This document shows positions 19,004-20,764 of a stretch of 64,000 bases of DNA, one piece after another. Source of the DNA: Cloacibacillus sp. An23 (lineage in GTDB: Bacteria > Synergistota > Synergistia > Synergistales > Synergistaceae). Within the stretch, counting starts at the first letter, position 1. Every line of letters begins with the position of its first letter. The notes below the pieces were generated by a model, which was given only the letters and a program-made list of their open reading frames with translations, had not been told where the DNA came from and ran no database searches. Location: the NCBI RefSeq assembly GCF_002159945.1, contig NZ_NFJQ01000004.1:1-64000 (forward strand), in the 5' to 3' direction. The position numbers and the translations under genes are program-made.

Positions 19004-19069
19004 ATGAAAACGCTGAGAATACATAATTGTAATCTAATAGCCATTACCCCCCCCCCGTGCATACTGTAA
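19004..19069 (+). CDS. Possible small leader ORF containing a C10 tract
   Basis: AGGGAGGGG (18987-18995) lies eight bases before an ATG at 19004. The frame encodes MKTLRIHNCNLIAITPPPCIL, 21 residues, then TAA. A run of ten C (19047-19056) sits inside it, so slippage changes the end of the frame: 11 C gives 26 codons, and 9 or 12 C opens a longer frame to about 19200. Whether it is translated is unknown. It may be a leader peptide, part of a dispersed repeat, or chance. Confidence 0.3.
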   Translation: MKTLRIHNCNLIAITPPPCIL

Positions 19070-19408: not shown

Positions 19409-20764
19409 ATGATTTCGTCAAAAAGCAGGAAGAAAAAATTTTTCAGAGCGCTCGCAGTCTGCGCGGTCGCGCTGATGTTCAGTACGTCGGTAGTTATTAG
19501 CGTGGAAGCGGCAAACGTCGCTCATCCAGACGGAGATGCAAGCGCTACGGGAGTCAACAGCACCGCACTAGGCTCAACAGCCAAAGCAGAAGGCAATCTC
19601 AGCACAGCAGTAGGCTACGGCGCTCATACAGACACTACACATGAGGGTACTGCCATCGGATACAACGCACAGACAGGCGGATATCAGGCTACAGCCAGCG
19701 GTTCAGGCGCTAACGCAACGGCGCTTCGCAGCACAGCAACAGGAGCTGCCGCCGAAGCGTCTGGCACTCGCGCCACAGCAAGCGGGTACAACGCAGAAGC
19801 AACAAAGGAAGATAGTACTGCAACTGGGGTAAACGCATCTGCGTCGGGTACGCGCAGCTCGGCATACGGCAATGCGGCACAAGCCAGTGCAATGGAAAGC
19901 ACCGCCATCGGTGACGGCGCAATCGCAGAGGCCAATCACAGCTCCGCTTTCGGCGTTGGGGCACATGCGCAGGGAATACAGAGCACGGCCATAGGGCACG
20001 ATTCACAAGCATCCGGTGTTCTTAGTTACGCAAGTGGGTATCAAGCGAACGCCTCTGGCAATGAAAGCATTGCTATGGGTACGAACGCGACATCAACAGG
20101 CTACGCCAACGTCGCCATCGGAAGTAACTCCCAGACGGCAAACCACTACAGCGTAGCAGTCGGAGCAAACAGCAGTGCAACTGCGGAAAACTCTGTCGCA
20201 ATAGGATACGATTCCATAGCCAACCGAATGAACACCGTCTCCTTCGGTAACGACACGCTCAAACGCCAGCTGACGAACATCGCGGACGGCGGTGTCTATC
20301 AGGGAAGCTCTGACGCCGTGACGGGCAATCAGCTCTGGAACGCATACCAGCGCATGGACGACCTGAAGGAAGACATCAACATCGTCGGCGCGCACGCCGC
20401 GGCTCTCTCGGGGCTTCACCCGATACAGTACGACCCAGATATGCCGACGACCCTTTCCGCCGCCGTCGGCACGTACCGCGACGAGTACGCAGTCGCGGTC
20501 GGCGTCTTCCACTACACGCGCGAGACGGTGATGTTCAACCTCGGCGCTTCGATATGCTCGGACGGCGACCTCATGGGGCGCGCGGGCGTGAGCTTCGCGG
20601 TCGGCAAGGGCGGTGAGAAGTCGAATAAGCGCGCGAAGGACGCCGCCTCGATGCAGAAGCGCATGGACGAGTTGGAAGCGATGCTCGCGAAGCTGATGGA
20701 GGAAAACGAACAGAACAAGCAGACCATCATCGAGCTTACGTCGCAGCTCGAAGCAAAGAACTGA
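19409..20764 (+). CDS. YadA-like head-repeat outer-membrane protein with C-terminal coiled coil
   Basis: 451 residues. A basic N-terminus and hydrophobic signal peptide (about 1-34, ending VEAAN) are followed by roughly 16 degenerate 14-residue head repeats (about 38-275) of the form xSxAxGxxAxAxG, as in trimeric autotransporter heads. A neck-like segment NTVSFGND leads to a YadA-anchor-like region (about 290-395: VGAHAAALSGLHPIQYD, AAVGTYRDEYAVAVGVFHY, NLGASICSDG, GVSFAVGKG). Unlike classical YadA, the protein does not end there: a charged heptad-rich coiled coil of about 55 residues follows. The head region is less GC-rich than neighbouring genes. Function in adhesion or envelope tethering is inferred. 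Confidence 0.85.
   Translation: MISSKSRKKKFFRALAVCAVALMFSTSVVISVEAANVAHPDGDASATGVNSTALGSTAKAEGNLSTAVGYGAHTDTTHEGTAIGYNAQTGGYQATASGSGANATALRSTATGAAAEASGTRATASGYNAEATKEDSTATGVNASASGTRSSAYGNAAQASAMESTAIGDGAIAEANHSSAFGVGAHAQGIQSTAIGHDSQASGVLSYASGYQANASGNESIAMGTNATSTGYANVAIGSNSQTANHYSVAVGANSSATAENSVAIGYDSIANRMNTVSFGNDTLKRQLTNIADGGVYQGSSDAVTGNQLWNAYQRMDDLKEDINIVGAHAAALSGLHPIQYDPDMPTTLSAAVGTYRDEYAVAVGVFHYTRETVMFNLGASICSDGDLMGRAGVSFAVGKGGEKSNKRAKDAASMQKRMDELEAMLAKLMEENEQNKQTIIELTSQLEAKN

What the first reader, a model, noticed from the sequence alone, without database searches (positions are those of the whole stretch)
19409..20764. YadA-like protein whose anchor is followed by a coiled-coil tail
Classical trimeric autotransporters end with the membrane barrel. 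Here the YadA-like anchor region continues into about 55 residues of heptad-rich coiled coil (TASMQKRMDELEAMLAKLM-like pattern). If the barrel inserts normally, this tail would lie in the periplasm and could tether the envelope.
Basis: partly seen in the sequence, partly recalled or inferred. Interest (0 to 1): 0.5.

Follow-up and report, generated by a model that had tools for sequence, protein, structure and literature searches.

The report
Trimeric adhesin with a periplasmic tail
This is a YadA-type surface adhesin whose membrane barrel carries an extra coiled-coil tail that should hang inside the cell envelope; extensions of this kind were already reported in this bacterial group, but a few relatives end in a cell-wall-binding SPOR domain, which hints at how such adhesins may be held in place.

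Summary
ORF 19409-20764 is a trimeric autotransporter adhesin. The tail is no accident: 84 of 84 YadA anchors found in 185 Synergistota genomes are followed by 41-192 residues, and 60 of 60 in six Negativicutes genomes by 37-178; 7 of 7 in five genomes of other phyla by 0-8. The tail holds the trimerization motif R-h-x-x-h-E in register (RMDELE), present in 41 of 72 distinct Synergistota tails versus 4.7 +/- 2.0 in shuffles. But the architecture is in print: Bechon et al. 2020 (PMC7549365) describe coiled or SLH domains after the YadA anchor in Veillonella, and extra domains there in Synergistetes and Fusobacteria, the coil's function unknown. Tethering is not shown for this protein; its tail has no recognised wall-binding domain. 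Apparently unreported (listings only): in one Synergistaceae genus five adhesin tails and one monomeric autotransporter end in a SPOR domain. I read the tail as a trimer clamp and pull-out stop on which wall-binding modules were built.

The parts
19409..20764 (+). Whole TAA gene, 451 aa plus stop
   Evidence: ORF; Pfam YadA_head, YadA_stalk (below cut-off), YadA_anchor
19409..19510 (+). Putative signal peptide (basic start, hydrophobic core, ending near ...SVEAA, residue ~34)
   Evidence: read from the sequence; no predictor run
20009..20089 (+). Best-scoring YadA_head stretch (residues 201-227) of nine
20267..20371 (+). YadA stalk-like segment (residues 287-321)
   Evidence: 23.9 bits, below the 28.4 cut-off
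20315..20410 (+). Predicted helix through the barrel pore (residues 303-334)
   Evidence: AlphaFold2; pore placement by analogy with Hia/YadA (recalled)
20426..20596 (+). YadA_anchor with four predicted strands (DNA 20447-20476, 20483-20521, 20528-20557, 20570-20596)
20597..20761 (+). C-terminal tail, 55 residues (397-451)
20630..20758 (+). Predicted tail helix (residues 408-450)
   Evidence: pLDDT block mean 63 at its start, then 82-95
20660..20677 (+). Trimerization motif RMDELE (R at g, M at a, L at d, E at e)
   Evidence: motif definition PMC3653964 (passages)

Best explanation
A type Vc (trimeric) autotransporter adhesin with a periplasmic coiled-coil extension. Three chains form the 12-stranded barrel; each fourth strand ends on the periplasmic side and, after a linker of about 11 residues, runs into a helix of 43 residues. 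The three helices most likely zip into a parallel trimer on the barrel axis (about 6 nm if fully helical). It would work as a clamp that holds the three chains in register and as a hydrophilic stop that must be unfolded or pulled through the membrane before the adhesin can be torn out. In some relatives the same scaffold carries a peptidoglycan-binding type of module (SPOR in one Synergistaceae genus, SLH in Negativicutes), which would turn the stop into a tether. Shown: gene, domains, tail present at every anchor examined in the two lineages, in-register motif, SPOR/SLH modules. Predicted: strands and helix. Inferred: trimer, periplasmic side, clamp and stop.
For: Four strands and tail helix predicted; folds like Hia, AtaA and YadA anchors. 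Tail in 84 of 84 Synergistota anchors (one, L068, frameshifted in the tail; four cut by contig starts) and 60 of 60 in six Negativicutes genomes (one, L161, has a stop in the anchor), against 7 of 7 anchors in five genomes of other phyla ending within 0-8 residues. Heptad score p<0.05 in 70 of 72 distinct tails. R-h-x-x-h-E in 41 of 72 distinct tails versus 4.7 +/- 2.0 (largest 12 of 1000) with I, L, M, V held in place; after collapsing similar tails 12 of 21 versus 0.99 +/- 0.95 (largest 7). The charge-reversed control E-h-x-x-h-R is in 10 of 72. The motif specifies parallel trimers, and mutating its Arg destabilises the periplasmic coil of FapF (PMC3653964, PMC6173795, passages). In simulations periplasmic TpgA-N about doubled the peak force needed to extract the AtaA barrel (PMC13082670 abstract). 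SPOR or SLH in the tails of some relatives.
Against: No trimer model; AlphaFold2 was run on one chain. [quoted passage not shown] it is absent from every tail of 6 of the 19 genomes (G124, G133, G134, G167, G168, G035) and is in only 10 of 60 Negativicutes tails (1.8 +/- 1.2 in shuffles). In the CbpF cryo-EM work the part after residue 274, barrel and tail included, was not in the 3.8 A map; an 8.3 A map of a small subset fitted the predicted autotransporter region and adjacent helix linkers. I found no mechanical data on any such tail in the passages read.
Confidence: 0.55

Rival explanations
1. Biogenesis only: the tail is a folding seed that trimerises the chains in the periplasm, or a docking site for a Skp/OmpH-like chaperone, and has no role once the barrel is in.
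For: OmpH-like ORFs lie directly upstream of two paralogous TAAs in the same genome (35.5 bits on C1, above the 32.4 cut-off; 17.9 on C3, below it). A trimerization motif near the C-terminus suits a seed. 68 of 73 Synergistota rows have no SPOR, and SLH is not among the 25 of 31 families listed.
Against: TAAs of other phyla end without a tail (7 of 7). No OmpH match among the window TAA and eight neighbouring ORFs scanned. SPOR and SLH in tails would be pointless for biogenesis alone.
Confidence: 0.22
2. Direct tether: the tail itself binds peptidoglycan or another wall component and links outer membrane to wall.
For: PF00691 OmpA-type wall-binding domains were found in 0 of 8 Synergistota genomes searched, so other tethers may be needed. 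SPOR/SLH-tailed relatives suggest that wall binding at this position is used.
Against: No wall-binding domain in this tail. 7 of the same 8 genomes have SLH proteins; the one read in full here is a 568-aa frame with an SLH domain that resembles OmpM-type tethers as I recall them (no barrel was tested), so a general tether is probably present. A 43-residue helix is short.
Confidence: 0.15
3. A passive relic: a lineage-specific extension kept by descent, with no function of its own.
For: Tail lengths vary (41-192 residues) and the motif is not universal.
Against: Present at all 84 anchors found; heptads and trimer motif kept far above shuffles; dN below dS against the C8 paralogue, on eight changes.
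Confidence: 0.06
4. Not a membrane protein: the anchor region does not form a barrel and the protein is soluble.
For: None found.
Against: Four predicted strands and matches to solved TAA barrels.
Confidence: 0.02

Closest known systems
TAAs with an extra domain after the YadA anchor in Veillonella, other Negativicutes, Fusobacteria and Synergistetes (Bechon et al. 2020, PMC7549365)
   Same: YadA anchor not at the C-terminus but followed by a further part, a coiled coil here; the paper names Synergistetes
   Different: The window tail has no SLH. The paper (passages and whole Discussion seen; its Data Set S1 not seen) leaves the coil's function open; its Discussion names SLH, coiled and OmpA-family extensions and no SPOR
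CbpF of Fusobacterium nucleatum (PDB 9gh4/9gh5, PMC12012533)
   Same: The profile of anchor plus tail matches over both parts (E 1.8e-38)
   Different: Another phylum; the tail was in the construct (S24-K479) but not in the 3.8 A model (passages)
AtaA-TpgA of Acinetobacter (PDB 9vnj, PMC13082670)
   Same: Same barrel fold; a periplasmic part below the barrel strengthens anchoring
   Different: There the part is a second, peptidoglycan-binding protein (introduction). PF00691 was found in 0 of 8 Synergistota genomes, and the window tail is in the same chain
FapF periplasmic coiled coil (PMC6173795)
   Same: Trimeric periplasmic coiled coil with R-h-x-x-h-E joined to an outer-membrane barrel protein (passages)
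   Different: N-terminal, and each chain has its own 12-stranded barrel
YadA, Hia
   Same: Head/stalk/anchor order and four strands per chain
   Different: They end at the barrel (recalled)

Membership tests
Trimeric autotransporter adhesin (type Vc) | YadA-type anchor domain | tested here: met
   PF03895 47.1 bits, cut-off 22.7
Trimeric autotransporter adhesin (type Vc) | Four beta strands per chain after a pore helix | tested here: met
   AlphaFold2 prediction; Foldseek to Hia, AtaA, YadA
Trimeric autotransporter adhesin (type Vc) | Modular passenger of head and stalk | tested here: met
   9 YadA_head stretches; stalk match below cut-off
Trimeric autotransporter adhesin (type Vc) | Homotrimer in the outer membrane | not testable with these tools
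   single-chain prediction only; motif RMDELE is indirect
Trimeric autotransporter adhesin (type Vc) | Anchor at the very C-terminus (typical, not defining) | tested here: not met
   55 residues follow
TAA with post-anchor extension (Bechon et al. 2020) | Coiled coil or SLH after the YadA anchor | tested here: met
   heptad score, 2 of 300 shuffles as high; helix 408-450 predicted
SLH-tailed TAA (Negativicutes) | SLH domain after the anchor | tested here: not met
   only YadA_anchor in the window's anchor-plus-tail row
SPOR-tailed TAA (relatives found here) | SPOR domain after the anchor | tested here: not met
   absent in the window protein; present in 5 of 73 rows
AtaA-TpgA two-part anchor | Wall-binding OmpA-type partner protein | tested here: not met
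   PF00691 in 0 of 8 genomes including the window's own; that TpgA carries this domain is recalled; other partner types not searched

The most novel reading that the evidence does not exclude
In one Synergistaceae genus (G135, G136) surface proteins of two unrelated barrel types, trimeric and monomeric autotransporters, have separately gained a C-terminal SPOR domain. SPOR domains bind wall glycan stripped of peptides, which is enriched at the division site (PMC6895207, passages). These adhesins would then be tethered to, and placed at, the septum and young poles from inside the envelope, the coiled-coil tail being the trimeric scaffold that made this possible.
Probability: 0.35. Interest if true: 0.65.

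Novelty: new member of a known kind. Interest (0 to 1): 0.4.

Why it matters
How surface adhesins resist being pulled out of a fluid outer membrane is described as largely unexplored (PMC13082670 introduction), and the published view of these coiled tails is that their function is unknown (PMC7549365). A tail at every anchor examined in two lineages, its in-register trimer motif and the swap of the far end between nothing, SLH and SPOR give a testable picture: a trimeric rod below the barrel on which wall-binding modules can be mounted. SPOR tails would in addition offer a way to place an adhesin at the division site from the periplasmic side.

Tried and rejected
Chance or frameshift as the origin of the tail: rejected. 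Soluble protein: rejected. A partner with an OmpA domain: none in 8 genomes. SLH in Synergistota tails: not among the 25 of 31 listed families for 73 rows (six families not shown; besides SPOR the listed ones are mostly coiled-coil families, and PF11924 inverse-autotransporter barrel matches 6 rows). A retroelement behind the poly-C tracts: no PF00078 match in the genome. The SPOR end of L103 against PDB by sequence: no hit at E <= 1; fold search of its model lists SPOR structures CwlC, RlpA, DedD and DamX, but with weak E-values, 0.011 to 0.36. Pfam on L093: SPOR only, nothing for its barrel; NCBIfam gave TIGR01414. Centring a genome search on Negativicutes failed. Literature: 'SPOR domain' with 'trimeric autotransporter' gave 2 papers, and at least two of 'SPOR domain', 'autotransporter', 'Synergistaceae' gave 8; none looked relevant by listing. 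Seen only as listing: the OmpM paper PMC10628300.

Full report
What is there. The ORF at 19409-20764 codes for a 451-residue protein with a likely signal peptide (read by eye), nine YadA_head stretches, a weak YadA_stalk match (below cut-off) and a YadA_anchor at residues 340-396. Neighbours include an aminotransferase, mnmE and, on the other strand after it, proS; of the eight neighbouring ORFs scanned none looks like a partner. The genome has four YadA anchors.

The tail. 55 residues follow the anchor. AlphaFold2 on residues 285-451 with a 27-row alignment predicts a helix (303-334), four strands (347-356, 359-371, 374-383, 388-396), a linker and a 43-residue helix (408-450), mean pLDDT 84.3, pTM 0.57. 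By fold the four matches at E <= 0.001 are three Hia structures and AtaA-TM with TpgA (9vnj); YadA 2lme follows at 1.6e-3. A profile of anchor plus tail matches CbpF of F. nucleatum (9gh4) over both parts with E 1.8e-38; in that work the part after residue 274 was not in the 3.8 A map, while an 8.3 A map of a small subset fitted the predicted autotransporter region and adjacent helix linkers (PMC12012533, passages).

Distribution. Of 185 Synergistota genomes searched, 19 have YadA anchors, 84 in all. I extracted every one: all 84 are followed by 41-192 residues before the stop. Four anchors are cut by contig starts and one tail (L068) is frameshifted; all are counted. 70 of 72 distinct tails have heptad scores with p < 0.05 against their own shuffles, without correction for multiple tests; the exceptions are L068 and L081. 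In six Negativicutes genomes, chosen because a TAA of theirs had been found, 60 of 60 anchors have tails of 37-178 residues (L161 has a stop inside the anchor). Among 204 genomes outside the phylum (389 searched less the 185), 5 have anchors, 7 in all, and 7 of 7 end 0-8 residues after the anchor. One Fusobacterium TAA examined has a coiled tail. The Escherichia and Neisseria plasmid-collection hits were not examined for tails.

A trimer mark. The motif R-h-x-x-h-E, which specifies parallel three-stranded coils (definition and caveats in PMC3653964, passages), is in 41 of 72 distinct Synergistota tails; shuffles that keep I, L, M and V in place give 4.7 +/- 2.0, at most 12 in 1000. E-h-x-x-h-R is in 10, K-h-x-x-h-E in 5, R-h-x-x-h-R and E-h-x-x-h-E in 0. 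After collapsing related tails it is 12 of 21 against 0.99 +/- 0.95. In the window it is RMDELE with R at g, M at a, L at d, E at e. Counting every anchor, 50 of 84 have it, in 13 of 19 genomes; G124, G133, G134, G167, G168 and G035 lack it. In Negativicutes it is in 10 of 60 against 1.8 +/- 1.2.

Wall-binding ends. hmmscan of 73 Synergistota anchor-plus-tail rows finds SPOR (PF05036) in 5. They are L032, L070 and L076 in G135 and L015 and L071 in G136 (L032 31.4 and L015 29.7 bits, cut-off 21; the matching places of all five). AlphaFold2 of L103, a named copy of L015, gives anchor, a 79-residue helix, a linker and a strand-helix-strand-strand-helix domain that Foldseek pairs only weakly with SPOR structures (E 0.011-0.36). 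In G135 a monomeric autotransporter (L093, frame open to the contig start; TIGR01414, 30.5 bits, cut-off 16) also ends in SPOR (34.5 bits). L094 and L095 of G135 end in SPOR after OmpH domains over cut-off, and L096 of G136 ends in SPOR without one. SPOR is present in 172 of 185 Synergistota genomes, mostly once or twice; G135 has 7, and G136, G120 and G121 have 4 each (those of G120 and G121 were not looked at). In Negativicutes 18 of 59 rows hold SLH and none SPOR. In 8 Synergistota genomes OmpA-type domains (PF00691) are in 0 and SLH in 7.

What is known. Bechon et al. 2020 (PMC7549365; passages and whole Discussion seen) report an SLH or coiled domain after the YadA anchor in all Veillonella TAAs, such extra domains also in other Negativicutes, Synergistetes and Fusobacteria, and OmpA domains in Streptobacillus; they state the function of the coil is unknown and suggest wall attachment for SLH. 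An earlier paper (PMC5491611, passages) describes SLH after the anchor in Negativicutes. I found no mention of SPOR-tailed autotransporters in the held library (by listing only; Data Set S1 of Bechon et al. could not be read).

How it most likely works. Topology places the tail in the periplasm (inference from the even strand number and solved TAA barrels). The best reading is a trimeric rod that clamps the three chains and resists extraction, as a hydrophilic periplasmic part does in simulations of AtaA-TpgA (PMC13082670, abstract and introduction). For the window protein a tether to the wall is not shown; its tail has no recognised binding domain. A role in assembly only is the main rival, supported by OmpH-like ORFs directly upstream of two paralogues (the second match is below cut-off).

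Limits. No trimer could be modelled. The SPOR-tailed proteins come from two genomes, one a MAG and one unnamed, though their frames run unbroken at several loci. Counts are of sequences, not independent events. The tail's dN/dS rests on eight changes.

Noticed in passing
window 19047-19056 (+), and L200, L201: A C10 tract lies 352 bp upstream of this TAA, another C10 upstream of the C8 paralogue, and a C9 about 700 bp upstream of the C1 paralogue; the genome has 8 distinct C10 tracts. Possible phase-variation or leader element (in the window the tract lies in a short frame, MKTLRIHNCNLIAITPPPCIL).
   Followed up: partly
L205 2535-2609 (G000:C6:177073): C11 tract soon after the start codon of a surface-protein-like gene, after which this frame meets a stop: may be a phase-variable gene in the off state.
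   Followed up: partly
L203, L206, L207, L204: C8 followed by GTnnnCAnnnnCTAA recurs (8 places with up to 2 mismatches; 0 for the pattern read backwards), several beside genes that look phage-tail-like by eye. No reverse transcriptase match in the genome. Unexplained.
   Followed up: partly
L093 1-3954 (G135:C97): Monomeric autotransporter barrel (TIGR01414) followed by a Pro/Lys/Glu-rich linker and a SPOR domain.
   Followed up: partly
L094, L095, L096: Proteins ending in SPOR, two with OmpH/Skp-like domains over cut-off.
   Followed up: partly
L201 2249-2719, L202 2476-2949: OmpH-like ORFs directly upstream of two other TAAs of the same genome (35.5 and 17.9 bits; cut-off 32.4).
   Followed up: partly
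tails of e.g. L010, L016, L018, L132, L143, L152: A shared linker between barrel and coil, roughly RYK.GPIS..YVMQ.E; a loose pattern for it is in 29 of 72 Synergistota tails (8 genomes) and 7 of 60 Negativicutes tails (all in G392): some tails look homologous across phyla.
   Followed up: partly
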